From the NCBI GenBank assembly GCA_020852555.1, contig JADZAQ010000149.1, positions 1 to 42,182 of the forward strand: a DNA stretch of 42,182 bases, given 5' to 3'. Within the stretch, counting starts at the first letter, position 1, and each line of letters starts with the position of its first letter. Below the pieces are notes generated by a model, which was not told the DNA's origin, searched no databases, and was given only the letters and a program-made list of their open reading frames with translations. A program made the translations under genes and the position numbers. This document shows, one piece after another, positions 22,872-35,825 of this stretch. Source of the DNA: Burkholderiales bacterium. Lineage in GTDB: Bacteria > Pseudomonadota > Gammaproteobacteria > Burkholderiales > Casimicrobiaceae.

Positions 22872-23669
22872 TTGACGCCGATCCTCGCTTTCGACATCGA
22901 GACGGTCCCCGACGTCGCCGGCATCCGTCGGACGAGCGACCTGCCGGCGGACCTCGAGGATGCTGGCGTGCTCGAGTGGTTCGCGCAGAAGCGCCGCGCC
23001 GCATCGGGCAGCGACTTCGCGCCGCATCATCTGCAGCGGGTGGTGGCGATCGCCTGCGCCCTGCGCACCGACCACGACCTTCGCGTGTGGTCGATCGGTG
23101 AGCTCGACGATCCCGAGGCGGAGTTGATCCGCCGCTTCTTCGACGGCATCGAGCGCTTCACGCCGCAACTCGTGTCGTGGAACGGCGGCGGGTTCGACCT
23201 ACCGGTGCTGCAGCAGCGCGGACTCATCGGCGGCATCACCGCGCAGCGCTACTGGGATTGGGGCGACGGGGATCGCGAGTTCAAGTTCAACAGCTACCTC
23301 GGGCGCTACCACACGCGCCACCTCGATCTCATGGACGTGCTCGCGATGTACCAGCCGCGCGCCAATGCGCCGCTCGATGCGATGGCGCGGCTGTGCGGCT
23401 TTCCGGGCAAGCTCGGGATGAGCGGCGCCGACGTGGCCGCCGCCGTCGCCCGCGGTGAACTGCACGACGTGCGCAGCTACTGCGAGACCGACGTCGTCAA
23501 TACGCTGCTGCTCTACCAGCGCTTCCGCCTGCTGCGTGGCGAACTCACCGCGGAGGAATACGCGCGCGAGATCGCCTTCGTACGCGAGAAGCTCGCGGCT
23601 TCCGATGCGGCGCACTGGAAGGCATTCGTGGCGGCGTGGGATGTCGCCGCAGCGGCTACACGGTCATGA
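22872..23669 (+). CDS. Predicted 3'-5' exonuclease, PolB-like
   Basis: A DEDD-type 3'-5' exonuclease of about 265 residues (PolB exo2-like family). Exo motifs: ILAFDIETVPD near the N terminus, LVSWNGGGFDLPVL in the middle and SYCETDVVNTLLLY near residue 205. The start is TTG at 22872: GGAGGG at 22860-22865 is correctly spaced for it, while a TTG at 22866 directly touches that site. The 3' end overlaps the convergent DUF1800/DUF1501 pseudogene by 14 bases. Its substrate is unknown. Confidence 0.85.
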   Translation: MTPILAFDIETVPDVAGIRRTSDLPADLEDAGVLEWFAQKRRAASGSDFAPHHLQRVVAIACALRTDHDLRVWSIGELDDPEAELIRRFFDGIERFTPQLVSWNGGGFDLPVLQQRGLIGGITAQRYWDWGDGDREFKFNSYLGRYHTRHLDLMDVLAMYQPRANAPLDAMARLCGFPGKLGMSGADVAAAVARGELHDVRSYCETDVVNTLLLYQRFRLLRGELTAEEYAREIAFVREKLAASDAAHWKAFVAAWDVAAAATRS

Positions 23670-24552
23670 ACGGCACCGGCGCGAAACGCCCGCCGAGGGC
23701 GTCGCGCGAATCGATGCCCCAGAACGTCTCGAGCGCCGTCGCATAGACGTTGCGGAACTCGAGGGCATACGCGGGACTGCCGTCGCCGCCGAGCGCGGCC
23801 AGGTCGGGGGCGGCGCCGTATAAGCCGCCGCGCACGCGGCCGCCGGCCAGCGGGCCCAGGTCGGACGAGCCGATGATCACCCCATCGGCGGCAAACGACG
23901 CGGGCACCGGATCGTCGGTGAAAGCGCGGGTGAGCCAGCCACCCTGCAAGACGACGTTGCTGCGGCTCGCCGTATCCCAGATCTCGATCGAGCGAAAGTG
24001 CGGCAGGTTGGGCGCGGGATACCCGACGCCCTGCAGGAGCGCGAGGCGTCGCTTCTCCCACAACGGCAGGAGGGGCGCCAGCGCCGGGTGGAGGCCCGAA
24101 CGATCCGACAGTTGCACCTTCTGCGCACTCGACACGAAGTGGTTGTGCCAGAAGAGCGTCATGCGCTCGGTCAGCGGTGACGGCGTGACGCGCATCTCCT
24201 CGACCCACCAGCCCCGCAGCTCGAGCATCTGCCGCAGCTGCGTCTGGCGGAAGGCGCGGCGCTCCTCGGCCGACGCGGTATTCGCATTGAGTTAGCGCAG
24301 TGGAGCATCGTCGAAGGCGAACGCAGGCGGCGGGGTCGACGCTTCGCTGCGTGTTTGCGCGAGGATGCGATCGACGCCCTCGACGCGCGTCAGCGCCGCG
24401 AACTCATGCACCTGCGCCGCGGTCGGCGCGAAGCCCGTACGCAGCAGGAGCTGGCGGGCATCGGCATCGCCCATCGCATCCGGTACGGGCACCGCGGCCT
24501 GCGCGGTGCAGGCGGCGACGAGGAGCATGCAGGCGGCAAGCGGGTGGCGCAT
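23656..24552 (-). pseudogene. DUF1800/DUF1501 fusion remnant with nonsense codon and two deletions
   Basis: Relic of the usual DUF1800-DUF1501 gene pair (secreted proteins of unknown function, often adjacent). Reading from ATG at 24552: a signal peptide (MRHPLAACMLLVAACTAQAA), then the DUF1800 start RQLLLRTGFAPTAAQVHEFA, then an in-frame TAA at 24292-24294. The same frame resumes (EERRAFRQTQLRQ, ELRGWWVEEMRVTPSPLTER, FWHNHFVSSAQKV), then jumps near 24110 straight into the middle of DUF1501 (GLHPALAPLLPLWEKRRLAL). Near 23840 a second jump links SSDLGPLAGG to RVRGGLYG, a C-terminal DUF1501 motif, ending GGRFAPVPFMTV. Most of both genes is therefore gone, yet no frameshift is present. It is not expected to function. 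Confidence 0.8.
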
Positions 24553-24652
24553 GGGAGACTCTCGTGAAGCAACCTCCACTCAACGCGTCACGCTACGCCC
24601 CTGTTGACGGCGCACGTCGAGCAGCGTGTAACCGGCTGTTGCACACCCCGGG

Positions 24653-26143
24653 TTAGTGCGGGCCCGCACGAGTCAATCGCGTGCTGCGGGTGGTCTCGAC
24701 CAGGAGCGAGAACCGCAGCAGCGTACGTTCTCTTGCCCGCGCGTGGTCGACGACAGGCAACGGATAGTCCACACCCAGGCGCAGGCCGCAGGCCGCGAGA
24801 TCGACCGGCTTCATCGCGGCTGGAAAGTGGATGTGCGCATCCGGCACCTGCGCCAACTCGGGCAGGTAACGGCGAATGAACTGGCCTTCGGGGTCGAAGC
24901 GCTGCGATTGCGCGACCGGGTTGAAGATGCGAAAGTAGGGCTGTGCGTCGCAGCCGGTGGACGCTGCCCACTGCCAGCCGCCGTTGTTGGCCGCCAGGTC
25001 GTAGTCGTTCAGGTGCTGGGCAAAAAAGCGCTCGCCTCGGCGCCAGTCGATGCCCAGATCCTTGGTCAGGAAGCTCGCTACCACCATGCGCAGGCGGTTG
25101 TGCATGTAGCCCGTCTGCAGTAGCTGGCGCATGGCGGCATCGACCAGCGGGTAGCCGGTGCGCGCCTCGCACCAGGCCTGCCAGAGCTCGGGCGCATCGT
25201 CCCACCGCACGCGGTCGTACTCGGGCCGGAAGGATTGCGTGACCACCTGCGGGTGGTGCCACAGGATCATGAAATAGAAGTCGCGCCAGGCGAGCTCCGA
25301 CAGCCAGGTCTGCGCTCCCGCGCTGCCCTCGGCGGCTTGCCGCACCGCCAGCGCCGCCAGTTGGCGGATCGACACGGTGCCAAAGCGCAGGTGCACCGAC
25401 AGGTACGACACGGCCTTGCGCCCGGGGTAGTCGCGCGCCTCGTGGTACGCGGCCATGCGCGGCACGAAGTCCTGCAGCAGCAGCTGCGCGCCGCACATAC
25501 CGGTGGGCAAGGGTAGCTCGTGCAGGTTGGTACGGCTAAAGCCCAGATCCGCCAGCGTGGGCAGGCGCTCGCCCGCAGGCGGCGGCGCCAGGTGCTGTGC
25601 ATACCTTGTCACCGGGTAGGGCCTGCACTGAAAGGTATCGAGCCGTTCCAGCCAGGCGCGCTTGTAGGGCGTGAACACGCTGTAGGGCCGGCCCTGCTGC
25701 GTCAGCACCTCGTCACGCTCGAGCAGCACCTGGTCCTTGTACTCGCTGAAGGCGATCCCTGCGACGGTCAGCGCCTCGGCCACGCGCTTGTCGCGGGCGA
25801 TGGCCTGGGGCTCGTAGTCCCGGTTGACCAGCACCTCCTGCACGCCAAGCTCCTGCGCCAACTGCACGATGCACGCCTGCGCCGGGCCATGGCGCACGAT
25901 CAGCCCGCCACCCGGCGCGCCGCTGTTAGCGGCCAACTGCTGCAGGTTGGCGTGCAGTTCCAGCACGCTGGCGTGGATGAATTCGACGCGCCGATCCGCG
26001 CGGCTGGGGAGCGCATCCAGGATGTCGGTATCGAACACGAAGGCGCAATACACCCGCGCGAAGCGGCGCAGTGCGTGATAGAGCGCCGCGTGGTCGTCGC
26101 AGCGCAGGTCACGGCGCAGCCATACCAGGGCGCTTCTGTCCAT
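24653..26143 (-). CDS. phrB: Deoxyribodipyrimidine photolyase
   Basis: Light-driven repair of cyclobutane pyrimidine dimers, 496 residues. N-terminal antenna domain (ALVWLRRDLRCDDHAALYHA) and C-terminal FAD domain (GRKAVSYLSVHLRFGTVSIR; WRDFYFMILWHHP; TGYPLVDAAMRQL; NDYDLAANNGGWQWAASTGC) are complete. ATG at 26143 is the start; the upstream frame is unrelated. It is the last gene of the minus-strand island array, 105 bases after the Cfa-like gene. Photolyase is a standard target of RpoE-ChrR type sigma systems, which fits its place here. Confidence 0.94.
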   Translation of the reverse strand: MDRSALVWLRRDLRCDDHAALYHALRRFARVYCAFVFDTDILDALPSRADRRVEFIHASVLELHANLQQLAANSGAPGGGLIVRHGPAQACIVQLAQELGVQEVLVNRDYEPQAIARDKRVAEALTVAGIAFSEYKDQVLLERDEVLTQQGRPYSVFTPYKRAWLERLDTFQCRPYPVTRYAQHLAPPPAGERLPTLADLGFSRTNLHELPLPTGMCGAQLLLQDFVPRMAAYHEARDYPGRKAVSYLSVHLRFGTVSIRQLAALAVRQAAEGSAGAQTWLSELAWRDFYFMILWHHPQVVTQSFRPEYDRVRWDDAPELWQAWCEARTGYPLVDAAMRQLLQTGYMHNRLRMVVASFLTKDLGIDWRRGERFFAQHLNDYDLAANNGGWQWAASTGCDAQPYFRIFNPVAQSQRFDPEGQFIRRYLPELAQVPDAHIHFPAAMKPVDLAACGLRLGVDYPLPVVDHARARERTLLRFSLLVETTRSTRLTRAGPH

Positions 26144-26248
26144 GGCCGTAACGCCCTTCGTGTCTGCATGGGGTTTTGCAGTGAGCATGGCGCCGCTCGG
26201 GAATGCGTCCATTCCGGCCGCTCTTTTTGCAGCGCGCACTGGTAGGCG

Positions 26249-27553
26249 TCAGCTTGCCTGCGCGAACGCTGGCAAGCCGACGTCGAGCGGTTGCTGCAGC
26301 ACGATTTGCGCATTGCCGAGCGCGCGCTCGGCGAAGCCGCCTTCGCAGTAGCTGAGGTAGAAGTGCCACAGCCGCAGCAAGGTCTCGGGATAGCCGCGTG
26401 CGCGCACGGCTTCGGCGCTGTCGAACAGCCCGCGGCGCCACGCCGCCAGCGTGGTGGCATAGTGCGGGCCGATGTCTTCGAGATCGACGATGCGCAAGCT
26501 CGACGCACGCGCTGCCGACTGCGCCAGCGCGCTGAGCGATGGAATGCAGCAGCCAGGAAAGACGTGGCGTTTGATGAAGTCGACCGAGTCGCGCGCCGCG
26601 GCGTACTGCCGCTCGTCGATCGTGATCGACTGCAGCACCATCGTGCCGCCCGGCGCGAGCAGTTCGCCGCAGCGGCGGAAGAAGGTGTCGAAGTACTGGT
26701 GGCCGACCGCCTCGATCATCTCCACCGACACCAGCTTGTCGTAGCAGCCATCGAGGTCGCGGTAGTCGTCCAGCCGCAGGTTGATCCGTCCGGCCAGTCC
26801 GGCGGCATCGATGCGCCGCCGTGCCAGCGCATGCTGCTCGCGCGAGATCGTCGTCGTCGTCACCCGGCAGCCATAGTGCAGCGCCGCGTGCAGCGCCAGC
26901 GCCCCCCAGCCGGTACCGATTTCCAGCAGATGGTCGCCCGGCTCGAGCTGCAGCTTGCGGCAGATGCGATCGAGCTTGGCGAGTTGCGCCTGCTCCAGCG
27001 TCATGTCGCCGCGCTCGTAGACGGCGCACGAGTACGTCATCGTCGGATCGAGGAAGAGCTCGAAGAAGTCGTTGCCGATGTCGTAGTGCGCGGCGATGTT
27101 GCGCCGGCTGCCGCCGCGCGTGTTGCGCGCCGCGGCATGCAGCAGCCGTCGCGCCGGGTCGGCGATGCGCGACCAGCCGCCGTCCAGCCCATCCAGCACG
27201 CGACGGTTGACGAGCACGATGCGCACCAGCGCCGTCAGATCGTCGACGCTCCAGTCGCCGGCCATGAACGATTCGCCGGCGCCGACCGAGCCGCCAAACG
27301 CCAATTCGGCGTAGAAGCGCCGCGCGTGCACCTGCACCGTGGCGTGCAGCGCGCAGCGCGTCGTGGCAGTGCCATAGGTGTCGCGCCGCGCGCCGTCGAC
27401 GATCGTCACCCGCCCATGCTCAAGCGCGGCGAATCGCGCGCGCAGCGCGCGTTCGCCCAGAGTGTGCAGGCCGCGGGCGACGGCGCCCGGCGCGGCAACA
27501 TCGCGCGGCGGCGCGTGCTCTCGATCGGCAAGGGTGCTGCCGGAAGCTTTCAT
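26249..27553 (-). CDS. Cyclopropane-fatty-acid synthase family methyltransferase (long form)
   Basis: A 434-residue SAM-dependent enzyme of the Cfa/CMAS family acting on unsaturated acyl chains of membrane lipids. The substrate region AHYDIGNDFFELFLDPTMTY starts at residue 155, the SAM motif EIGTGWG is at residues 211-217, and EMIEAVGHQYF carries the active-site Glu. It resembles the Cfa-type enzymes induced by singlet oxygen in Rhodobacter (CfaA/UfaM). Its ATG overlaps the DUF1365 stop as ATGA, so translation is coupled. Whether it makes a cyclopropane or a methyl-branched product cannot be told from the sequence. Confidence 0.9.
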   Translation of the reverse strand: MKASGSTLADREHAPPRDVAAPGAVARGLHTLGERALRARFAALEHGRVTIVDGARRDTYGTATTRCALHATVQVHARRFYAELAFGGSVGAGESFMAGDWSVDDLTALVRIVLVNRRVLDGLDGGWSRIADPARRLLHAAARNTRGGSRRNIAAHYDIGNDFFELFLDPTMTYSCAVYERGDMTLEQAQLAKLDRICRKLQLEPGDHLLEIGTGWGALALHAALHYGCRVTTTTISREQHALARRRIDAAGLAGRINLRLDDYRDLDGCYDKLVSVEMIEAVGHQYFDTFFRRCGELLAPGGTMVLQSITIDERQYAAARDSVDFIKRHVFPGCCIPSLSALAQSAARASSLRIVDLEDIGPHYATTLAAWRRGLFDSAEAVRARGYPETLLRLWHFYLSYCEGGFAERALGNAQIVLQQPLDVGLPAFAQAS

Positions 27554-28368
27554 CGGTGGGGCTCCGTCGGGTGTGAATCGGCGCCGGCCGCGTGAGCGGC
27601 TTTCGAGCGCGTCGGGTGGTCATGGACCGGCACCCGCTTGCGCCACAGGCGCAGCGCCTCCCAGTGAATCGCGGCGATCACCTTGGCCGTCATCCACGGA
27701 AAACGCAACAGCGTGCCGGCCAGCGCGGCGCCGCCGATCGGCACACGCCGCAGCGCGAGCGTGGCGCCGAACACCGGCGAGCCGGCGTCGGCGTCGAGAT
27801 CGCGCAACGCCATGTGTACCGCCAGCGTCTCGCCGGGCGTGTGCAGCTGCCAGTCGTAACGCAGCGCCATCGGCTGGAACGGCGAGACGTGCATGGCCTT
27901 GTCGCTTTGCGCGCACAGCCGCTGCGCCTGCGGCTCGCGCTGCGGCAGAACGTAGCAGTGGCGTTCGCCCCACGGCGTGTTGTTTACTTCCGCGACCACC
28001 GCCTGAAGCGTGCGGCCGGCGCTATCGAAGCAGTAGTAGAAGCTGACCGGGTTGAAGACGTAACCGAAATAGCGCAGCTGCGTCAGCAGCCGGATCGGCC
28101 CCGTGGGCCGTTGCCCGGTGCGCTCGGCGACCAGTGCACGCACCGCTTCGTCCAGCGGCCGCGCCGGGTCGCCGAGGTGGTCGCGGCGGTCGAAGCGCGC
28201 CAGCACCGGTCGACGTCCCGGTCGCGTCGACCACAGCCAGCGGCCGCGGAACACCTCGTCGAGTTCGGCCAGGTCCAGGTAGACCATGAACAGTCGGTAG
28301 CGAAACGCATGCCGGCGCGGCACGAGCCGCCGGTGGTCAAGCCACCCGTGGTACAGCGCGCTGTGCAT
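27550..28368 (-). CDS. DUF1365 domain protein
   Basis: A 272-residue protein beginning MHSALYHGWLDHRRL. The family signature LLTQLRYFGYVFNPVSFYYCF is present, as are VVAEVNNTPWGERHCYVL and FHVSPF-like KAMHVSPFQPM. The function is unknown; the family is almost always encoded between a flavin amine-oxidase-like protein and a Cfa-like methyltransferase, so a lipid-modifying role is likely. The start at 28368 places its first 32 bases inside the end of the flavoprotein gene; a longer frame is less likely. Confidence 0.9.
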   Translation of the reverse strand: MHSALYHGWLDHRRLVPRRHAFRYRLFMVYLDLAELDEVFRGRWLWSTRPGRRPVLARFDRRDHLGDPARPLDEAVRALVAERTGQRPTGPIRLLTQLRYFGYVFNPVSFYYCFDSAGRTLQAVVAEVNNTPWGERHCYVLPQREPQAQRLCAQSDKAMHVSPFQPMALRYDWQLHTPGETLAVHMALRDLDADAGSPVFGATLALRRVPIGGAALAGTLLRFPWMTAKVIAAIHWEALRLWRKRVPVHDHPTRSKAAHAAGADSHPTEPHR

Positions 28369-29665
28369 CGTCTTCCCTTCTGCCGGCGGACCGGCTCCGG
28401 GCGGCGTCGAATCGCTGCAGTGCCTGCCGTGCGCTGACGACGCCGTCCTCGTGAAAGCCGTAGCGCCAATAGGCACCGCAATAGTGGGTGCGTCCACCGT
28501 TCTGCGGCGCGCCGCTGATCTCGTGATGGCGCCGCTGCGCTGCCGCGCCGGCAGGCGTGAACAGTGGATGCGCGTACGACATACGGCGCAGCACGCGAGC
28601 CGGGTCGACGTGCGCCTCGGCGTTCAGCGTTACGCAAAAGGTGTGGCGCGAACGCAGCCCCTGCAGCACGTTCATGTCGTAGGTCAGCGCGACGCCGCCG
28701 CCGGCGCCGCTCAGTCGGTGAACATTCCAAGCCGCCCACGCGCGCCGCATGCGTGGCAGGATCGACGTGTCGGTGTGCAGCAGCGCCTCGTTGCGCTGGT
28801 ACGGCAACGCGCCGAGGATGTCGCGCTCTGCGGGTGAGGCATCGGCCAGCAGGCGCAGCGCCTGGTCGGCGTGGCAGGCGAGAAAGACGTGGTCGAAACG
28901 CTGCGGCGCCCAGCCGCGCGCGTGCACCGTTACGCCGTCGGCGTGCCGCCGCAGCTGCTCGACCGCGCAGTCCAGCCGGATGCAGTCGCGAAAGGGCGCC
29001 ACCAAAGGCTCGAGATAGCGCGCCGACCCGCCCCGAACGACGCGCCAGGTCGGCCGCTCGTCGACGCTGAGCATGCCGTGGTTGTGCAGGAAGCGCACGA
29101 AGAAGCGCGCCGGGAAGTCGAACATCCGCACCGGATCGGTCGACCAGATCGCCGCACCCATCGGCACCAGATAGTCGTCGACGAAGCGCCCGCCGAAGCC
29201 GTTCGCGTCGAGGTACGCGCCGAGCGTGGTCTCGCCACCGGAGGCGTTGAGCAGTTGCGGGGCCTCACGGTGGAAGCGCAGGATCTCGGAGAGCATGCCG
29301 ATGAAGCCCGGCTGCAGCAGGTTGCGGCGCTGTGCGAACAGCGCGTTCAGCGAGCTGCCGCTGTATTCGAAGCGGCGCGCCTCGTCGCGCACCGAGAAGC
29401 TCATCGAGCTGGGCTGCGAAGCGACGCCGAGTTCGTCGAGCAGCGCGCAGAACTCCGGATAGGTGCGCTCGTTGAATACGATGAAGCCGGTGTCGATGTG
29501 CTGCACCTCGCCGTCGATCTCGATTCGGTGCGTGTGGGTGTGGCCGCCGATGCGCGTGTCGGCTTCGTAAACCGTCAGCGCGTGGCCGTCGCGGTGCAGC
29601 CGGCGGGCGACGACATTGCCAGCGATGCCGGTGCCGATGATGGCGATCTTCAGAGGCGGCATCAT
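28337..29665 (-). CDS. FAD-dependent amine-oxidase-fold enzyme, UfaD-like
   Basis: A 442-residue flavoprotein. The Rossmann motif IIGTGIAGNVVARRL (GxGxxG at 11-16) and Glu34 (VYEAD) bind FAD; GGHTHT and YLVPMGAAIWSTDP are conserved in this group. The C terminus CGAYWRYGFHEDGVVSARQAL closes the FAD site. In Rhodobacter the related UfaD desaturates a methylated acyl chain on the way to furan fatty acids; by position and fold this protein is a candidate, but substrate is inference. The start ATG overlaps the desaturase stop as ATGA. Confidence 0.88.
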   Translation of the reverse strand: MMPPLKIAIIGTGIAGNVVARRLHRDGHALTVYEADTRIGGHTHTHRIEIDGEVQHIDTGFIVFNERTYPEFCALLDELGVASQPSSMSFSVRDEARRFEYSGSSLNALFAQRRNLLQPGFIGMLSEILRFHREAPQLLNASGGETTLGAYLDANGFGGRFVDDYLVPMGAAIWSTDPVRMFDFPARFFVRFLHNHGMLSVDERPTWRVVRGGSARYLEPLVAPFRDCIRLDCAVEQLRRHADGVTVHARGWAPQRFDHVFLACHADQALRLLADASPAERDILGALPYQRNEALLHTDTSILPRMRRAWAAWNVHRLSGAGGGVALTYDMNVLQGLRSRHTFCVTLNAEAHVDPARVLRRMSYAHPLFTPAGAAAQRRHHEISGAPQNGGRTHYCGAYWRYGFHEDGVVSARQALQRFDAARSRSAGRREDDAQRAVPRVA

Positions 29666-30612
29666 GCATCCCCGGTGCGGCCGGCGCGCGGCTCACGAAC
29701 TGCCGCCGGCACGGTCTTCAGACCGTCGATCAGGCCGAGTGCCGCCAGCAGCCGGAGGCCGTAATAGGTCAGGTCGACCTCCCACCAGAAGAAGCCTTGC
29801 CGTGCCGACGCCGGATAGTGGTGATGGTTGTTGTGCCAGCCTTCGCCGAACGTCGGCAGCGCCAGCCACGGGTTGTTGCGCGACGCGTCGCGCGTCGCGT
29901 AGCGGCGGCTGCCGAAGCGGTGGGCCAGCGAGTTGATGCTGAAGGTGGCGTGGTACAGCGCGACCGTGGATACGCAGAAGCCCCACACCAGAAGCTGCGC
30001 ACCGCTGGTGTGCAGATGCGGCATGCGGCGCTCGGCAAGTGCGCCGGCGGCCCACAACAGCCCCGCCAGCAGCGCGGGTACCAGCGCGTCCCAGCGGTCG
30101 AGGAAGCGCAGCTCCGGAAAGCGTGCGAGCGAGCGCACCAGATCGTCTCGCGGTGCGAAATTCACGCGCGCCATGAACCAGCCCATGTGACTCCAGAAGA
30201 AGCCGTGGCGCAGCGCCGAGTGGCTGTCCTGCGGCTCGTCGGCGTGCACGTGATGATGGCGATGATGCGAGGCCCACCACAGCGGTCCGCGCTGTGCCGC
30301 CGCGGCGCCGAGCAGCGCGAAAGCGAACTGCACTGCGCGCCCGGTGCGGAACGCCTGGTGCGAGAAGTAGCGGTGGTAGAAGCCGGTGATCGCGAACATG
30401 CGCAACGCATACAGCATCGCCGCGACAACCACCGCGACCGTACTCACGCCCACCCACGGCAGCGCCAGGCAGCCGGCGTGGATCGCGATGAACGGCAGCT
30501 GTCGCAGCCAGTCGATGCGCCGCGGCTCGCCGCCATCGACGCCGCCGGCGTGGCCATCGAACCAGGCGCGCACCATCGCCCTCGATCGCGCGGTACGGTC
30601 GGTGCCATTCAT
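29662..30612 (-). CDS. Membrane fatty-acid desaturase (acyl-CoA/acyl-lipid type)
   Basis: A 316-residue integral membrane di-iron desaturase. All three His boxes are present: HRYFSH (His80, His85), HHRHHH (His116-121) and HNNHHH (His260, His263, His264). Four hydrophobic segments surround them. It is of the delta-9 stearoyl-CoA-like class (FAITGFYHRYFSHQAFRTGR). Both ends are in ATGA overlaps with neighbours, so it is fully built into the operon. It could create the double bond used by the two Cfa-like enzymes, or act on the membrane independently. Confidence 0.9.
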   Translation of the reverse strand: MNGTDRTARSRAMVRAWFDGHAGGVDGGEPRRIDWLRQLPFIAIHAGCLALPWVGVSTVAVVVAAMLYALRMFAITGFYHRYFSHQAFRTGRAVQFAFALLGAAAAQRGPLWWASHHRHHHVHADEPQDSHSALRHGFFWSHMGWFMARVNFAPRDDLVRSLARFPELRFLDRWDALVPALLAGLLWAAGALAERRMPHLHTSGAQLLVWGFCVSTVALYHATFSINSLAHRFGSRRYATRDASRNNPWLALPTFGEGWHNNHHHYPASARQGFFWWEVDLTYYGLRLLAALGLIDGLKTVPAAVREPRAGRTGDA

Positions 30613-31394
30613 GGGCGCCACCGCCACGGCACGAACGCCGGCGTGCGCCGCGTGTACTCGGCGTAGCCCGGACGACGCCGGCCGAGATCCTTCTCGAGCA
30701 GCGGCACGCCCGAGACCTTCAGCAGCAGGAGCGTCATCAGCAGCGGCGAATACACGGTCCACCACGCGCCCGCTGCGGCCGCGACCAGCCACAGCCCCCA
30801 CCACAGGCAGCATTCCCCGAAGTAGTTCGGATGCCGCGACCAGCGCCACAGCCCGCGGTCCATCACTGCGCCACGGCTGTGCGGATCGGCCCGAAAGCGC
30901 GCCATCTGCGCGTCGGCCACCGCTTCGTAGAGGAGTCCGAAGACCGCCAGCACCAGCCCTGCGGCATCGAGCGCACGCCACGGCACTGGGCTCGCCACCG
31001 CGGCCATCAGCGGTGCGGCGACCATCCAGCCGAGCAGCGCCTGCAGGCCGAACACCAGGTAGGCGCTCTTCCACTGAAAATGCGGCCCGTTGCGTTGGCG
31101 GATCGCCTGGTAGCGCCGGTCCTCGGGCTGGCCGCGTCGGCGCCACGCGATGTAGACCGACAGGCGCAGCGCCCACGCGGTCGCCATCGCCAGCACGGCC
31201 ACGGCGCGCACACCGGTCTGCGGCAGCAGCGCGGCGACCACCAGCGCCGGCAGCAGCACCAGCAGGCCCCAGACGCTGTCGACGATGCTGACATCGCGCC
31301 GCGGCACACTTGTCGCCCAGACGATCAGCGCCAGCAGCACTGCGGCACCGAGGCCAAGTGCGGCGGCGTGAATCAAGGCTCCGTCGGGTCTCAT
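30609..31394 (-). CDS. DUF1295 / steroid 5-alpha-reductase-like membrane protein
   Basis: A 261-residue protein with about six or seven membrane helices. The DUF1295 C-terminal motif GLWRWSRHPNYFGECCLWWG and the final PLLEKDLGRRRPGYAEYTRR are clear. The family belongs to the superfamily of 3-oxo-5-alpha-steroid 4-dehydrogenases and isoprenylcysteine methyltransferases; the substrate is unknown, a lipid being likely. Start and stop take part in ATGA overlaps with the neighbouring genes. Confidence 0.9.
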   Translation of the reverse strand: MRPDGALIHAAALGLGAAVLLALIVWATSVPRRDVSIVDSVWGLLVLLPALVVAALLPQTGVRAVAVLAMATAWALRLSVYIAWRRRGQPEDRRYQAIRQRNGPHFQWKSAYLVFGLQALLGWMVAAPLMAAVASPVPWRALDAAGLVLAVFGLLYEAVADAQMARFRADPHSRGAVMDRGLWRWSRHPNYFGECCLWWGLWLVAAAAGAWWTVYSPLLMTLLLLKVSGVPLLEKDLGRRRPGYAEYTRRTPAFVPWRWRP

Positions 31395-31826
31395 GCGGAC
31401 TCGCTATGCGATTTGCGGTCGAGCCGTGCTGCGATCGCGATCAATGTCGGAAACATCAGTGCCCAGCCGCCGCCGATCGTCACCAGCGCAGCCGGCGGAT
31501 CGGCGAAGCGGCACGCGCCGAGGCGCCCAGCCGCTCAGCGGACGCGGCGACCTGTACTGCACGATGCCGGTGCGCGCCAGAAGGCTGTCCCAGGCGACGC
31601 CGAGCAGCAGCGCCACCGCGATCAGGCGCAGATCGGCGCGCCGATTCGTGCTCACGGCCAGCGCCAGCGCGACCATCAGCGCAACGGCCGCGATGCCTAT
31701 CCACGGCTCACCGCGCGCCGCGCCGATGACGCAGGCGAACCAGGCGAGCTGGAACAGCACGAAGCCCATGCCCAGTCGCAGCATCCGCCTTGCGTCGCTA
31801 CCCGCCTCGGTGTGCGGCGAACTCAT
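31391..31826 (-). pseudogene. DUF2878 membrane protein, internally deleted and frameshifted
   Basis: The start ATG (31826) overlaps the Cfa/CNMT-like stop as ATGA. The N half is normal DUF2878: FVLFQLAWFACVIGAARG, then LLGVAWDSLLARTGIVQY. After SGW near 31525 the frame leaves the family and stops at TAG (31404-31406), giving 140 residues with a nonsense Arg/Ser tail. A second minus-strand frame supplies the true C terminus (RLGACRFADPPAALVTIGGG, ALMFPTLIAIAARLD), ending in a TGA that overlaps the DUF1295 ATG. The central conserved helix region between these halves is missing, so this is a deletion plus frameshift rather than a single-base error. The product is probably non-functional. Confidence 0.75.
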
Positions 31827-32869
31827 CGGCCGCGCGGCTCGAACAGGTAGTGCGCGACCCACCATTCACGCCCCCGGTCGTGGCCGAAGAGCTCAGCGCA
31901 GGAGATGAAGAACAAGCGCCAGCGCATCCACCACAGCCCGGCCCGCTCCGCGCCATAGGCTTGCGCGAGGATCGGCCACAGCGTCTGGCGTCGCGCGTCC
32001 ATGTTCGCCAGCCACGCTTCGGCGGTGCGCGCATAGTGCGTGCCGTCCCAGCGCCAGCGCGCGACAAGCGCCAGCTCGTCCTGGCAGCGCAGCGCCAGGT
32101 CGTCGCTGGGCATCATGCCGCCGCCGAAGAAATACCGAGCCATCCAGTCGCTGTCGTCGCGCGTCTCGAACGCATACGGCGTGCTGCGGTGGACAAAGAC
32201 ATGCATGAAGAAACGCCCACCGGGTTGCAACCAGCCGGCGACGCGCCCGAACATGAGCGGCCAGTTGCGCAGATGCTCGAACATTTCCACCGACACCACG
32301 CGGTCGAAGCGCGCGTCGAGCTGCAGCATCGCCACGTCGGCCGTGACGACTTGCACGTTGCGCAGGCCACGGCTGTGTGCCTGTGCCGCGATGTAGGCGC
32401 GCTGCGACTGCGAGTTCGACACCGCGGTGATCCGGGCGGCGGGGAGGCGCGCCGCCATCCACAGCGTAAGCGAACCCCAGCCGCAGCCCAGTTCGAGAAT
32501 GTGCTGGCCGTCCTCCAGCTGCGCACGCTGCGCGGTGGCGGCGAGTGCAGCCTCCTCGGCCGCGTCAAGATCTACGACGCCGGGCGGCCACCACGCCGAG
32601 CTATACTTTCGCTGCCGCCCCAGCACCTGGCCGAAGAATTCGCTCGGCAGCTCGTAGTGCTGTTCGTTGGCCTTGTGCGGCAGCAACGCGATCGGTGCGC
32701 CGCGCATCGCCGCGATGAAGGCTTCGGCCTGCGCCGCGGTCGCTTCGGGGTCGCGTGCGGCAATCGTGTCGAGCCGCGCCTGCAGCAGCCGCCGGATACC
32801 GGCGCGCACCACCCGCTCAGGCACCATGCCACGCTCGGTCAATTCAACTGCCATCTGGGTCAGGGGCAT
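31823..32869 (-). CDS. Cfa/coclaurine N-methyltransferase-like SAM enzyme (short form)
   Basis: A 348-residue SAM-dependent methyltransferase of the CMAS superfamily. It keeps KANEQHYELPSEFFGQVLG at residues 66-84, the SAM motif LELGCGWG at 125-132 and EMFEHLRNW. The ending GREWWVAHYLFE is typical of the coclaurine N-methyltransferase-like branch rather than classic Cfa. It is the first gene of the minus-strand array, next to the divergent ECF sigma gene. ATG at 32869 is chosen; MAVELTERG five codons later is an alternative. It differs enough from the long-form enzyme that a second, separate substrate is likely. Confidence 0.88.
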   Translation of the reverse strand: MPLTQMAVELTERGMVPERVVRAGIRRLLQARLDTIAARDPEATAAQAEAFIAAMRGAPIALLPHKANEQHYELPSEFFGQVLGRQRKYSSAWWPPGVVDLDAAEEAALAATAQRAQLEDGQHILELGCGWGSLTLWMAARLPAARITAVSNSQSQRAYIAAQAHSRGLRNVQVVTADVAMLQLDARFDRVVSVEMFEHLRNWPLMFGRVAGWLQPGGRFFMHVFVHRSTPYAFETRDDSDWMARYFFGGGMMPSDDLALRCQDELALVARWRWDGTHYARTAEAWLANMDARRQTLWPILAQAYGAERAGLWWMRWRLFFISCAELFGHDRGREWWVAHYLFEPRGR

Positions 32870-32922
32870 CGGGCTTCGCGTGTTTCTCGGCCGACGCGGC
32901 GGTGTCCGCGGAGCCGTTTGCA

Positions 32923-32952
32923 CATATACGCAGCCGCGGCGCGTTCGGATCA
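32923..32952 (-). promoter_or_regulatory. Candidate ECF promoter of the lipid operon
   Basis: On the minus strand, TGATCC (32952-32947), 18 bases, then TATATG (32928-32923). TGATCC-like -35 elements are known for RpoE-ChrR (ECF11) sigma factors. The predicted start lies about 45 bases before the Cfa/CNMT-like ATG. Confidence 0.6.
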
Positions 32953-32965
32953 TCGATGCGCGCAT

Positions 32966-32995
32966 TGATCCAGCCGCCGCGCGGTGGCGTAGAAG
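32966..32995 (+). promoter_or_regulatory. Candidate autoregulated ECF promoter of the sigma gene
   Basis: TGATCC (32966-32971), 18 bases, then TAGAAG (32990-32995). It stands back to back with the minus-strand site, forming an inverted pair of TGATCC motifs 13 bases apart, as expected for divergent autoregulated units. Confidence 0.55.
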
Positions 32996-33060
32996 GCGCA
33001 TGGGATCAGTCCGACCGATGGCGAAATTTGCGGCCGTACGGCCTCTGCCGCTAGGCTATG

Positions 33061-33090
33061 GTCATATGGGCACCGTGGGGCCCGGGATCA
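33061..33090 (-). promoter_or_regulatory. Second candidate minus-strand ECF promoter
   Basis: TGATCC (33090-33085), 18 bases, then TATGAC (33066-33061) on the minus strand. It would give a longer leader for the same lipid operon. A further TGATCC on the minus strand (33008-33003) has no -10 partner. Confidence 0.35.
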
Positions 33091-33101
33091 CCGAGCGCCG
33101 G

Positions 33102-33668
33102 ATGCCGACCAACGAACAACTCAACGAATGGATGCAAGCCGTGGCGAGCTGCGCCGACCGGCCGGCCTTCGCCGCGCTGTTCAGGCACTTCGCGCCGCGG
33201 CTGAAGGGCTTTCTGGTGCGCTCCGGGAGCGACGACGCACTGGCCGAGGAGCTCGTGCAGGAGACGATGGTCGCGCTGTGGCGGCGCGCCGCCGGCTTCG
33301 ACCCGCAACGCGCGATGCTGTCGACTTGGATCTACACCATTGCACGCAATCTGCGCATCGACCACCATCGACGCCGCTCGGGCATCGATGCGGTGCTTGT
33401 CGACGACTGGGATGCCGAGCAGCAGCCGGCCGACTCGCACTTGCAGCCGGACGAACTGCTGCAGTTGCTGCAGCGCCAGCGCGACGTGCAGCGAGCGCTG
33501 GCCGAGTTGCCGGCGCAGCAGGCGCAGTTGCTGCGCCTGTCCTTCTTCGACGAGCAGCCGCACAGTCGGATCGCCCAAGAACTGGGCATCCCGCTGGGCA
33601 CGGTCAAATCGCGCATCCGGCTGGCGGTGCAACGGCTTCGTAAGCTTTTGGAGCAAGGCTCGACATGA
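33102..33668 (+). CDS. ECF sigma factor, RpoE-ChrR (ECF11-like) type
   Basis: A 188-residue extracytoplasmic-function sigma factor. Region 2 spans about residues 25-90 (ELVQETMVALWRRAAGFDP; STWIYTIARNLRIDHHRRR); region 4 spans about 125-180 (ALAELPAQQAQLLRLSFFDE; HSRIAQELGIPLGTVKSRIR). The downstream ChrR-type gene overlaps its stop as ATGA, which defines it as a sigma/anti-sigma pair. ATG at 33066 would add 12 residues and is an alternative start. By homology it should be released on singlet oxygen or light stress and drive the divergent lipid operon and itself. Confidence 0.92.
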   Translation: MPTNEQLNEWMQAVASCADRPAFAALFRHFAPRLKGFLVRSGSDDALAEELVQETMVALWRRAAGFDPQRAMLSTWIYTIARNLRIDHHRRRSGIDAVLVDDWDAEQQPADSHLQPDELLQLLQRQRDVQRALAELPAQQAQLLRLSFFDEQPHSRIAQELGIPLGTVKSRIRLAVQRLRKLLEQGST

Positions 33669-34318
33669 TCCAGCACCATCCCGGCGACGAATTGCTGCTG
33701 CCGCTGGCGGCCGGCCGTTTGGGCGGCGGACAGGCGCTCGTGGTGAGCGCCCACCTGGAGGGCTGCGCCGAATGTCGCGTGCGGCTGCACACGCTGCAGG
33801 CGCTGGGCGGCGTGCTGCTGGAGCAGTCCGAGCCGATGACGCTGCACGGCGATGCCTGGGAGCGCACACTGCAGTGCATTGCCGCGCCGGCTGCCGTGCC
33901 ATCGGCGCCGGCCGTGCCAACCCCCCGCCCCGTCCTGCCGGCGGGCGTGCCGTGGCCGTTCAGCCTGCGCGCTTGCGCCGTCTCCGGCTGGCACTGGATG
34001 GGGCCGGGAATGCGCTATGCGCGCATCGTTCTCCCCTACGATCCGGCGGCCCGGTTGTTCCTGCTGAGCATCGGCGCAGGTCGCAGCCTGCCGCGTCACA
34101 CGCACGGCGGTGTCGAATTGACGCAGGTGCTATGTGGCGCCTTCGATGACGGCCGCGCCGTCTTCGCGACCGGCGACTTCGATGCGGCCGACGAAACGGT
34201 GCACCACCAGCCAGTGGTGCGCGCCGGCGAGACCTGCGTGTGCCTCGCCTATGTCGGCGCACGCATGCGCTTCGACGGACGGATCGCGTCGGCGATCGCC
34301 GCGAGCATCGGCATGTAG
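33665..34318 (+). CDS. ChrR-type zinc anti-sigma factor
   Basis: A 217-residue cytoplasmic regulator. The N-terminal zinc anti-sigma domain has His5 (or His4), His30, Cys34 and Cys37 (HLEGCAEC), matching the ligand spacing of Rhodobacter ChrR. The C-terminal cupin (about 100-200) has HTHGGVELTQ with His145, His147 and Glu151, plus His180, the metal set needed for the singlet oxygen response in ChrR. All key residues are kept, so it should be a working sensor. Its ATG overlaps the sigma stop. Confidence 0.92.
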   Translation: MIQHHPGDELLLPLAAGRLGGGQALVVSAHLEGCAECRVRLHTLQALGGVLLEQSEPMTLHGDAWERTLQCIAAPAAVPSAPAVPTPRPVLPAGVPWPFSLRACAVSGWHWMGPGMRYARIVLPYDPAARLFLLSIGAGRSLPRHTHGGVELTQVLCGAFDDGRAVFATGDFDAADETVHHQPVVRAGETCVCLAYVGARMRFDGRIASAIAASIGM

Positions 34319-34325
34319 CGGCGGT

Positions 34326-34733
34326 TCAGTCGCACCGCGCACGGCCTGCGCGCTGCGCCGCCCAGGCGCTCGCACCGGTGGCGAACGCGCCCCAGGCGAG
34401 GTCGATGCCGGTCAAGTAACACGGCCAGCCCGCGACGACGGCCTGGCTGGTGAGGTCGTAGGTGGCGTAGCACACGAGCCCGAAGAACGTCCCACGAAGC
34501 AGCGCGGCGCGGCCGCTTTGCGCCGGCACCACGACGAAGACCATCACTCCTGCGAGGTACAACACGTAGAACACCACCGCGGCAAACACGTCGAAGTCTT
34601 CGCGCATGATGTGGCCGATGGCGGGCCGGTATAGTCGCGCGCCCATCGCCGACAGCCATGCCGCGTCGAGCAGCAGGAAGACCGCCGAGCCGACGACGAC
34701 GGCCAGTGCCAACTCCCGCGCCTTCATCGCCAT
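34326..34733 (-). CDS. DUF2177 membrane protein
   Basis: A 135-residue protein with four hydrophobic helices. Family motifs are present: LDAAWLSAMGARLYRPAIGH, FYVLYLAGV and FGLVCYATYDLTSQAV. The function is unknown; DUF2177 genes recur in LitR- and ChrR-linked light-stress clusters. It converges with chrR, eight bases apart. ATG at 34733 or 34727 may start it. Confidence 0.88.
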   Translation of the reverse strand: MAMKARELALAVVVGSAVFLLLDAAWLSAMGARLYRPAIGHIMREDFDVFAAVVFYVLYLAGVMVFVVVPAQSGRAALLRGTFFGLVCYATYDLTSQAVVAGWPCYLTGIDLAWGAFATGASAWAAQRAGRARCD

Positions 34734-34945
34734 GAAGGCGGCTCCGTCATGGCAAGCGGTAGCTCAGCCGGCGGTCGTCACGCGCCTGCCTGCTCACTTC
34801 GGTGACGTGGCCTTCGTCGTCGGCGCGCGCTGCAGGAGCCGCAGCGACGCAACCCAGCGCCAGCGGAGTCGGCGCGACCATGTGCCGCGGCGGCAAGCCA
34901 CTCGGCGGCGCGGCGGCGGTCCGGGAAGGAATCGACAGCATGTCT

Positions 34946-34975
34946 GTCGTACGCGCGTAAGTGCGCGGCGGATCA
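34946..34975 (-). promoter_or_regulatory. Possible ECF promoter toward DUF2177
   Basis: Minus strand TGATCC (34975-34970), 18 bases, then TACGAC (34951-34946), similar to the TATGAC of the site near 33061. The leader to DUF2177 would be about 205 bases, which weakens the assignment. Confidence 0.35.
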
Positions 34976-35116
34976 CCCCGTTCGTCGTCGGCGCGCTTCT
35001 CAGCCCTATCGCGCGGTCCTTCGCCCATCACCGATCTGCGTTCGCCGTTGCCAATGGAATCGAGAATTCACGACGAGTCATCGGCAGTGAAGAGCGCCGC
35101 TCGGGGAACGCATACG

Positions 35117-35160
35117 GACCAATGGCCGCTTGCGGGGGTCAGCGGCTTGCGGTATTGGTC
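35117..35160. repeat. Nested inverted repeat upstream of the lipocalin
   Basis: GACCAAT (35117-35123) and ATTGGTC (35154-35160) are complementary; inside them GCCGC pairs with GCGGC. It ends about 60 bases before the lipocalin ATG and may be an operator or a hairpin in the leader. Confidence 0.4.
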
Positions 35161-35222
35161 AGGTCTGCAGTCCCTTGGTGGCGCAGTAACGTCACGCTCA
35201 TTGACCTCACGAAGGATTTCCA

Positions 35223-35825
35223 ATGCCCGCGCTTGCACACCCGCATCGAAGCACACGCGCATCCCCTTCACGCCGCCAGTGTCTGGGGGTGCTGGCATTG
35301 CTGCTGGCGGGCGCTGGCCTGCTGGTGGCGGGCTGCGCCAGCACCCGCCCGCCACCCGGCGTGACGGCCGTCGAGCCCTTCGACGTGCAGCGCTACCAGG
35401 GCCGCTGGTACGAGCTGGCGCGGCTCGATCACGCCTTCGAGCGCGGCATGACCGATGTCTCGGCCACCTATACGGTGCAGGCCGACGGCAGCGTGCGTGT
35501 GGTCAACCGTGGCTACATGCCGGCCACCGGCCAATGGCGCGAGGCCGTAGGCAAGGCGCTGTTCACCGGCGCGCCCACTACCGGATCGCTCAAGGTGTCA
35601 TTCTTTGGGCCGTTTTACGGCGGCTACCACGTCGCCGCACTCGACCCGGACTACCGCTGGGCGTTGGTGCTGGGACCCGATACCGGCTACGCCTGGATTT
35701 TGGCGCGCAGCAAGCAATTGCCTGCGGTGCAGCGCGATGCCATCGTGGCGCGTGCGCAGGTGCTGGGTGTCGATACCTCGGCGCTGATCTGGGTAACGCA
35801 GGCGCTCCAGGACCCAGCTCACTGA
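35223..35825 (+). CDS. Blc-type outer-membrane lipocalin lipoprotein
   Basis: A 200-residue lipocalin. A long basic N-region is followed by a signal with lipobox LVAGC, lipidated Cys38. The lipocalin motif YQGRWYELARLDHAFERG, the internal FFGPFYGGYHVAALD and the closing TGYAWILAR are those of bacterial Blc, which binds fatty acids or lysophospholipids and is induced by envelope stress. AAGGA lies about seven bases before the ATG. It fits a lipid-protection role in the island. Confidence 0.92.
   Translation: MPALAHPHRSTRASPSRRQCLGVLALLLAGAGLLVAGCASTRPPPGVTAVEPFDVQRYQGRWYELARLDHAFERGMTDVSATYTVQADGSVRVVNRGYMPATGQWREAVGKALFTGAPTTGSLKVSFFGPFYGGYHVAALDPDYRWALVLGPDTGYAWILARSKQLPAVQRDAIVARAQVLGVDTSALIWVTQALQDPAH

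What the first reader, a model, noticed from the sequence alone, without database searches (positions are those of the whole stretch)
24653..35825. ECF sigma/ChrR island that links lipid modification, photolyase and lipocalin
The gene set (sigma, ChrR with all metal ligands, two Cfa-like methyltransferases, UfaD-like flavoprotein, desaturase, DUF1365, DUF1295, DUF2177, photolyase, lipocalin) matches the light/singlet-oxygen regulons of RpoE-ChrR systems, which include furan fatty acid synthesis. Its betaproteobacterial setting and extra desaturase make it a candidate for a variant pathway of unusual membrane lipids. Seen: genes and motifs. Inferred: inducer and product.
Basis: partly seen in the sequence, partly recalled or inferred. 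Interest (0 to 1): 0.8.

Follow-up and report, generated by a model that had tools for sequence, protein, structure and literature searches.

The report
Furan-lipid stress island with ChrR switch
The region is a stress-controlled gene island, of a kind already known from related bacteria, that probably makes protective furan fatty acids in the cell membrane; what is new is mainly where it was found and how its two halves seem to have been put together.

Summary
Sigma and ChrR are an ECF11 RpoE-ChrR pair with both metal sites. The known ECF11 promoter motif (TGATCC-N18-TA) occurs four times (0.24 expected): before sigma-chrR, twice at the start of the eight-gene lipid operon, and before DUF2177; the lipocalin has none. 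The operon holds the whole published furan-fatty-acid route: UfaM (active-site His266 is Gln, as in all 35 UfaM-type rows compared), UfaD, UfaO (the DUF1365 gene) and a FufM-like methylase expected to give the dimethyl form. Unusual is a mosaic: sigma and ChrR group with same-order relatives, UfaD-O-M with a clade from other orders that holds the desaturase-bearing islands. Inducer, product and desaturase role are inferred; in S. maltophilia the system aided superoxide, not singlet-oxygen, tolerance. New member of a known kind, modest interest.

The parts
33102..33668 (+). ECF sigma factor, ECF11 / RpoE type
   Evidence: Sigma70_r2 and r4; best solved relative R. sphaeroides RpoE 2q1z, E 1.7e-38
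33665..34318 (+). ChrR anti-sigma factor, N-terminal zinc anti-sigma domain and C-terminal cupin, all eight ligands kept
   Evidence: TIGR02451 over cut-off; alignment to 2z2s
32966..32995 (+). ECF11 promoter-like site TGATCC-N18-TAGAAG before sigma-chrR
   Evidence: exact match to TGATCCn16CGTA, consensus from PMC5507510
33061..33090 (-). ECF11 promoter-like site TGATCC-N18-TATGAC before the lipid operon (one mismatch to the consensus with CGTA)
32923..32952 (-). second ECF11 promoter-like site TGATCC-N18-TATATG; lies inside the longest reading of the FufM-like gene and precedes it only if the gene starts at 32869 or later
34946..34975 (-). ECF11 promoter-like site TGATCC-N18-TACGAC, 243 nt before DUF2177
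31823..33001 (-). FufM-like SAM methylase ('Cfa2'); start 32869 fits the relatives' alignment better than 33001
   Evidence: family profile matches coclaurine N-methyltransferase at 2e-100, E. coli Cfa at 1.9e-40; 46-49% to its Rhodopseudomonas counterparts; alignment
31404..31865 (-).
   Evidence: PF11086, 69.6 bits
30609..31394 (-). DUF1295 membrane protein, steroid-5-alpha-reductase-like fold predicted
   Evidence: PF06966 230.9 bits; model and weak fold matches
29662..30597 (-). acyl-CoA (SCD-like) fatty acid desaturase
   Evidence: PF00487 72.3 bits; acyl-CoA desaturase 1, 4ymk, E 3.5e-24; His boxes
28337..29665 (-). UfaD-type FAD desaturase
   Evidence: Amino_oxidase 78.8 bits; conserved ufaD-ufaO-ufaM neighbourhood in relatives
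27550..28368 (-). UfaO-type oxygenase (DUF1365)
   Evidence: PF07103 282.1 bits over 5-253; UfaO is a DUF1365 protein (PMC7380195)
26249..27553 (-). UfaM-type fatty acyl methylase ('Cfa1'), not a typical cyclopropane synthase by its active site
   Evidence: E. coli H266 position is Gln; groups with UfaM-type rows
24653..26143 (-). class I CPD photolyase, last gene of the presumed operon
   Evidence: Pfam; E. coli photolyase 1dnp E 1.9e-93
34326..34733 (-). DUF2177 membrane protein
   Evidence: PF09945 124.6 bits
35223..35825 (+). lipocalin, probable lipoprotein (lipobox-like LLVAGC, judged by eye)
   Evidence: Lipocalin_2 136.9 bits; sequence

Best explanation
An ECF11 sigma/anti-sigma switch controls, through its own promoter type, a tightly packed operon that remodels membrane phospholipid acyl chains into methylated furan fatty acids. 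At rest ChrR holds the sigma factor; photo-oxidative or other membrane oxidative stress releases it; it then raises its own expression, the lipid operon with the photolyase, and DUF2177. UfaM methylates an unsaturated acyl chain, UfaD makes the methylated diene, UfaO adds oxygen from O2 to close the furan, FufM adds the second methyl. The furan scavenges oxidants and the photolyase repairs light damage. The desaturase probably supplies the cis-monoene precursor. Shown here: genes, motifs, active-site and kinship evidence, promoter-like sites. Inferred: stimulus, product, order of steps, role of the desaturase.
For: ChrR over its curated cut-off with all ligands. Promoter motif: 4 in the window against 0.24 expected; 15 in the whole genome against 1 for the pattern read backwards, so 4 of 15 fall in this island. 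TGATC[CT]-N18-TA stands before sigma in 14 of 21 relative loci and at the start of ufaD, the FufM-like gene or the desaturase in 12 of 21 (no shuffle control made there). UfaD, UfaO and UfaM together in 17 of 21 relative loci; ufaD and ufaO in 56 of 80 alphaproteobacterial-type loci that were fetched by FufM similarity. UfaM: Gln at E. coli H266 in 35 of 35 UfaM-type rows; His in E. coli Cfa, in two other CMAS proteins of this genome and in two further Rhodopseudomonas-group paralogues. FufM-like. Published: UfaM, UfaD, UfaO and FufM activities (PMC7380195); the S. maltophilia nine-gene counterpart rises 165- to 697-fold in a chrR mutant and falls back without the sigma gene, RNA-seq done once (PMC11832516).
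Against: No expression or lipid data for this organism. In S. maltophilia sigma activation aided superoxide tolerance and did not affect singlet-oxygen or peroxide tolerance. Neither R. palustris RPA0924 nor R. sphaeroides UfaM/UfaD/UfaO was compared directly; FufM kinship rests on Rhodopseudomonas-group relatives and elimination. The window's UfaM lies in a nine-row clade (97/99) apart from the 22-row clade holding the Rhodopseudomonas UfaM rows, so its substrate could differ. No motif was found at sigma or the operon in 5 relative loci (L082, L084, L085, L087, L088), L082 and L087 being the ones nearest to the S. maltophilia layout. With two mismatches allowed the motif is not above chance in the window (33 against 26.3). 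No site before the lipocalin.
Confidence: 0.8

Rival explanations
1. Same enzymes, different chemistry: the desaturase makes a delta-9 monoene (or adds a second double bond) that this UfaM clade prefers, so the island makes furan or methyl-branched chains that differ in position or length from 9M5- and 9D5-FuFA.
For: The desaturase overlaps ufaD by 4 nt and stands directly before ufaD in L043, L082, L087 and the Acinetobacter plasmid L280; in L091 it has its own motif 56 nt upstream. The desaturase-bearing islands lie in one UfaM clade apart from the Rhodopseudomonas one (97/99, L280 not in that tree), and in the UfaO+UfaM tree the six form a group of their own (93.7/78). No desaturase in the 80 loci, within the flanks held.
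Against: Members of the same clade without the desaturase exist (L080, L083, L084, L085). The three-gene tree, which lacks L087, does not keep the desaturase-bearing islands together. The genome has a second desaturase and FabA-family proteins, so a precursor role is not forced.
Confidence: 0.25
2. The sigma/ChrR pair serves mainly superoxide, hydroperoxide or membrane stress, not light and singlet oxygen.
For: In S. maltophilia sigma-Ec activation and its nine-gene cluster affect menadione tolerance, not singlet-oxygen tolerance (PMC11832516).
Against: All cupin-domain ligands kept; photolyase next to the operon; singlet-oxygen response of other ECF11 systems (PMC6852236).
Confidence: 0.35
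3. The two 'Cfa' genes are ordinary cyclopropane synthases and the island only makes cyclopropane lipids.
For: Both belong to Pfam CMAS. Cotton cyclopropane synthases also have Q at the H266 place in two of three (PMC3132707), and cyclic acids were seen with Halomonas UfaM in E. coli (PMC12089945).
Against: Gln at H266 in Cfa1 as in all UfaM-type rows; Cfa2's family is closer to coclaurine-type methyltransferases; the genome has two other CMAS proteins with the full Cfa ligand set; UfaD and UfaO neighbours.
Confidence: 0.05

Closest known systems
Stenotrophomonas maltophilia rpoEc-chrR-chrA with smlt2375-smlt2367 (PMC11832516)
   Same: ECF sigma and ChrR, divergent operon with acyl-CoA desaturase, FAD oxidoreductase, a cytosolic hypothetical (DUF1365 only by position, my inference), two Cfa, two membrane proteins, lipocalin; sigma-dependent by RNA-seq
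   Different: There a chrA gene follows chrR, a periplasmic protein starts the operon and the lipocalin ends it; here the FufM-like gene stands first, photolyase last, lipocalin and DUF2177 separate. The S. maltophilia sequences themselves were not compared. The phrase 'furan fatty acid' occurs 0 times in that paper
R. sphaeroides RpoE-ChrR regulon with ufaM and the ufaD-ufaO operon (PMC7380195, PMC6852236)
   Same: Switch, promoter type, UfaM, UfaD, UfaO, photolyase
   Different: There ufaM lies far from ufaD-ufaO (PMC12089945); dimethyl product only after adding fufM; no desaturase gene in the passages read
R. palustris RPA2569-2571 (ufaM, ufaO, ufaD) and RPA0924 (fufM) (PMC7380195)
   Same: All four furan steps including dimethyl product
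   Different: fufM is unlinked from the other three by locus number; here all are in one presumed operon
Acinetobacter schindleri plasmid p1AsACE, AsACE_RS15300-RS15270
   Same: lipocalin, acyl-CoA desaturase, FAD oxidoreductase, DUF1365, Cfa-like, DUF1295, SAM methyltransferase in a row
   Different: No sigma/ChrR in the stretch seen; a histidine kinase and response regulator follow; no DUF2878 or DUF2177 match
Burkholderia anthina and Caballeronia sp. NK8 plasmid islands
   Same: Betaproteobacterial sigma/anti-sigma island with DUF1295, FufM-like, lipocalin, UfaD, UfaO, UfaM
   Different: Anti-sigma gives no tblastn hit to the window ChrR above 45 bits, no desaturase hit

Membership tests
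ECF11 RpoE-ChrR system | ChrR of the TIGR02451 family with ZAS ligands H,H,C,C and cupin ligands H,H,E,H | tested here: met
   173.5 bits against 124.5; alignment to 2z2s
ECF11 RpoE-ChrR system | adjacent sigma gene of RpoE type | tested here: met
   4-nt overlap with chrR
ECF11 RpoE-ChrR system | TGATCC-n16-CGTA promoters at sigma-chrR and at target operons | tested here: met
   three exact, one with a mismatch; activity not tested
ECF11 RpoE-ChrR system | activation by singlet oxygen | not testable with these tools
   needs cells
Furan fatty acid pathway | UfaM, UfaD and UfaO (DUF1365) families together | tested here: met
   Gln at the H266 site. UfaD judged by domain and neighbourhood only; no direct comparison with the characterised R. 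sphaeroides proteins
Furan fatty acid pathway | furan product from phospholipid chains | not testable with these tools
   needs GC-MS
FufM dimethyl-furan methylase | orthology to RPA0924 | tested here: inconclusive
   RPA0924 not in hand. Counterparts in 4 of 4 genomes searched (named: Rhodopseudomonas sp. AAP120, R. palustris JSC-3b; two unnamed near kin), 25-30% to the other strong CMAS proteins there, beside DUF1295; the paper gives 26% to UfaM, another paper likens FufM to plant LIME1
Cyclopropane fatty acid synthase | bicarbonate ligands C139, E239, H266, I268, Y317 | tested here: not met
   Cfa1 C,E,Q,I,Y; Cfa2 S,E,H,F,Y
LitR/CarH light islands (MerR type) | MerR-family regulator beside the genes | tested here: not met
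   none among the 12 annotated genes of 24653-35825; seen instead in Azoarcus

The most novel reading that the evidence does not exclude
A desaturase-coupled subtype of the furan fatty acid pathway: a UfaM/UfaD/UfaO clade from other orders that carries its own O2-dependent acyl-CoA desaturase and so makes furan chains of other position or length on demand, here joined by recombination to a sigma/ChrR half of this order and a FufM-like gene, giving a one-locus dimethyl-furan factory.
Probability: 0.25. Interest if true: 0.55.

Novelty: new member of a known kind. Interest (0 to 1): 0.35.

Why it matters
It puts relatives of all four known bacterial furan-fatty-acid enzymes, their switch and a coupled desaturase into one testable locus outside the alphaproteobacteria. 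It also suggests that the published S. maltophilia stress cluster is a furan fatty acid operon, a reading not found in the passages read of that paper nor by phrase count, and it points to DUF1295 as a partner of FufM.

Tried and rejected
Rejected: cyclopropane synthesis as the main function (active-site test). Not robust: a single origin of the desaturase-bearing islands. The UfaO+UfaM tree supports it (93.7/78; 6 of 6 together among 36 rows) but the UfaD+UfaO+UfaM tree of 28 rows does not. Five of the 41 sets tried for one search were dropped (L077, L079, L085, L086, L090: gene absent or blast extension not open). In some searches and 83 rows without an open reading of the needed genes were dropped without a list (for example the AAP120 FufM row and L087 in the three-gene tree). 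Led nowhere: search for the empty insertion site through a neighbouring gene (6 of 22 same-genus genomes, own included, have it; the same-genus island G025 lies on another contig than its copy of that gene); GC content of the island is like that of the rest. UfaO model (pLDDT 87) gave only a weak nitrobindin-barrel resemblance (best E 0.013, TM 0.33 by query length). DUF1295 model: best by E the methyltransferase ICMT 5v7p (E 0.096, TM 0.33), best by fold steroid 5-alpha-reductase 7bw1 (E 0.13, prob 1.00, TM 0.53); none reaches E 0.001. In the CMAS tree the row OWN_C259 was read in an overlong frame and sits on a very long branch; it was corrected for but the tree was not rebuilt. On the second look I softened the promoter claim: the script takes the first start of each frame, and by that rule the sites at 32966 and 32952 also lie inside longest readings.
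Full report
Gene content. On the minus strand runs a tight presumed operon: FufM-like methylase, DUF2878, DUF1295, desaturase, UfaD, UfaO, UfaM, photolyase, with overlaps or gaps of -43, 9, 11, -4, -32, -4 and 105 nt, taking 32869 as the first start. Sigma and chrR are on the plus strand and overlap by 4 nt. DUF2177 (-) and lipocalin (+) lie beyond chrR.

Switch. The ChrR protein passes the curated cut-off of TIGR02451 and aligns along its length with R. sphaeroides ChrR 2z2s, keeping the eight zinc ligands that PMC6852236 lists (passages read; alignment). The sigma factor's best solved relative is R. sphaeroides RpoE. ChrR of this kind is rare nearby: 5 of 399 genomes of the order and 16 of 369 of the class, own genome counted in both, pass the cut-off. 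In the family sample of 60, own genome included, 4 have a match: the own genome and G025 strongly, two others at 22 and 20 bits.

Promoters. PMC5507510 (passages) gives the P. syringae consensus TGATCCn16CGTA; PMC4336711 (passages) gives a like motif with mapped starts in Shewanella. TGATCC-N18-TA occurs 4 times in the window, 0.24 expected, none of 100 shuffles reaching 4. In the whole genome there are 15, against 1 for the pattern read backwards. Of the 11 outside the island, by a crude longest-frame script, 8 lie inside reading frames, 2 have no ORF near, 1 precedes an ORF but looks like a repeat. By the same script the sites at 33090 and 34975 precede genes, while those at 32966 and 32952 also fall inside longest readings; they precede sigma (start 33102) and the FufM-like gene (start 32869) only with the starts preferred here. 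With two mismatches to TGATCCn16CGTA allowed the motif is not above chance (33 against 26.3; 12 of 100 shuffles reach 33), and none of those hits lies before the lipocalin. In relatives TGATC[CT]-N18-TA stands before sigma in 14 of 21 loci and at ufaD, the FufM-like gene or the desaturase in 12 of 21 (in L043 and L044 it touches the assumed start); none at these places in L082, L084, L085, L087 and L088.

Enzymes. PMC7380195 (abstract, passages and section 9 read) shows that UfaM, UfaD and UfaO make 9M5-FuFA, that UfaO is a DUF1365 protein and that FufM adds the second methyl. The window has all three families in the order ufaD-ufaO-ufaM. The three occur together in 17 of 21 relative loci (of the other four, L047 is cut by a contig end, L086 is partial, L079 and L090 have none). 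The E. coli Cfa bicarbonate ligands C139, E239, H266, I268 and Y317 (PMC3132707, passages) read C,E,Q,I,Y in the window UfaM; Q is found in 35 of 35 UfaM-type rows, H in E. coli Cfa, in both other strong CMAS proteins of this genome and in two further Rhodopseudomonas-group paralogues. Caution: cotton cyclopropane synthases also have Q there in two of three, by the same paper.

FufM. The second 'Cfa' is a distant one. Its family profile matches plant coclaurine N-methyltransferase at 2e-100 and E. coli Cfa at 1.9e-40. Four genomes of the Rhodopseudomonas group were searched (two named, AAP120 and JSC-3b, two unnamed near kin): each has one counterpart of it (46-49% identical), one UfaM next to ufaO, and two of the four a third CMAS protein above 100 bits; the counterpart is 25-30% identical to those. 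The paper gives 26% for RPA0924 against R. sphaeroides UfaM. PMC10940516 (passages) likens FufM to plant LIME1. DUF1295 stands beside the FufM-like gene, or one gene away with DUF2878 between, in 9 of 9 relative loci that have it, and lies in 61 of the 80 loci fetched by FufM similarity. By position it is probably RPA0923, which the paper deleted; the outcome is not in the passages read.

Desaturase and mosaic. The desaturase is SCD-like. It is in 4 of 21 relative loci (L043, L082, L087, L091), in the Acinetobacter plasmid, and in 0 of those 80 loci. In the sigma+ChrR tree the window groups with the same-genus L043 and the same-order L044-L047 (89.2/94; five of the six at 99.9/100); in the UfaD-O-M tree it groups with L043, L091, L080, L083, L084, L280 (99.4/96), and the same-order loci L044-L046 fall among alphaproteobacterial rows. 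Identities cross over in the same way: to L044 sigma 53, ChrR 48, FufM-like 62, but UfaD 44, UfaO 40, UfaM 42; to L082 sigma 46, ChrR 38, FufM-like 51, but UfaD 51, UfaO 54, UfaM 51, desaturase 63. This supports a mosaic of two halves. The FufM+DUF1295 tree speaks less clearly: there L080 and L083, from other orders, fall beside the window, L043 and L047 (100/100), and the same-order L044-L046 join only at 51.4/38.

Known or new. PMC11832516 (passages and section 3.6 read) reports for S. maltophilia a sigma/ChrR-controlled nine-gene cluster with desaturase, FAD oxidoreductase, two Cfa and lipocalin, 165 to 697-fold up in a chrR mutant, affecting superoxide tolerance and beta-lactam susceptibility; sigma activation did not affect singlet-oxygen tolerance. 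Paper searches made. In one search that paper has no occurrence of 'furan fatty acid'. The same lipid module stands under other regulators elsewhere: beside a MerR gene in Azoarcus, under class II LitR in Pseudomonas (PMC9758184, passages), beside a two-component pair in Acinetobacter.

Conclusion. The feature is real and well explained as an ECF11 furan-fatty-acid island. The inducer, the product and the desaturase's role remain inferred. It is a new member of a known kind with an unusual mosaic.

Noticed in passing
23656-24579 (-): Beside the island's end lies a degraded gene: a DUF1800 piece with an in-frame stop before it, continuing into a stretch that by eye resembles another (DUF1501-like) C-terminus.
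   Followed up: partly
30612-30706 (-): ARAGORN calls a 95-nt tRNA-Arg inside the DUF1295 coding sequence; probably a false call.
   Followed up: no
L280, L281, L282, L283: The UfaD-UfaO-UfaM module, with a FufM-like gene in L280-L282, appears beside different regulators (two-component pair, sigma with an anti-sigma unlike the window ChrR, MerR); the Acinetobacter and Azoarcus records are typed mobilizable, the Burkholderia one conjugative.
   Followed up: partly
27550-28368 (UfaO): The predicted UfaO fold is a beta barrel weakly like the haem protein nitrobindin, a possible hint to the unknown UfaO cofactor.
   Followed up: partly
L123, L127, L129, L130, L135, L138, L149 and L151-L230: ChrR, DUF1295 and the FufM-like gene, often with DUF2177, cluster in alphaproteobacteria (among the 80 loci L151-L230: ChrR in 33, DUF1295 in 61, DUF2177 in 51), so DUF1295 and DUF2177 may be under-recognised members of the ECF11 regulon.
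   Followed up: partly
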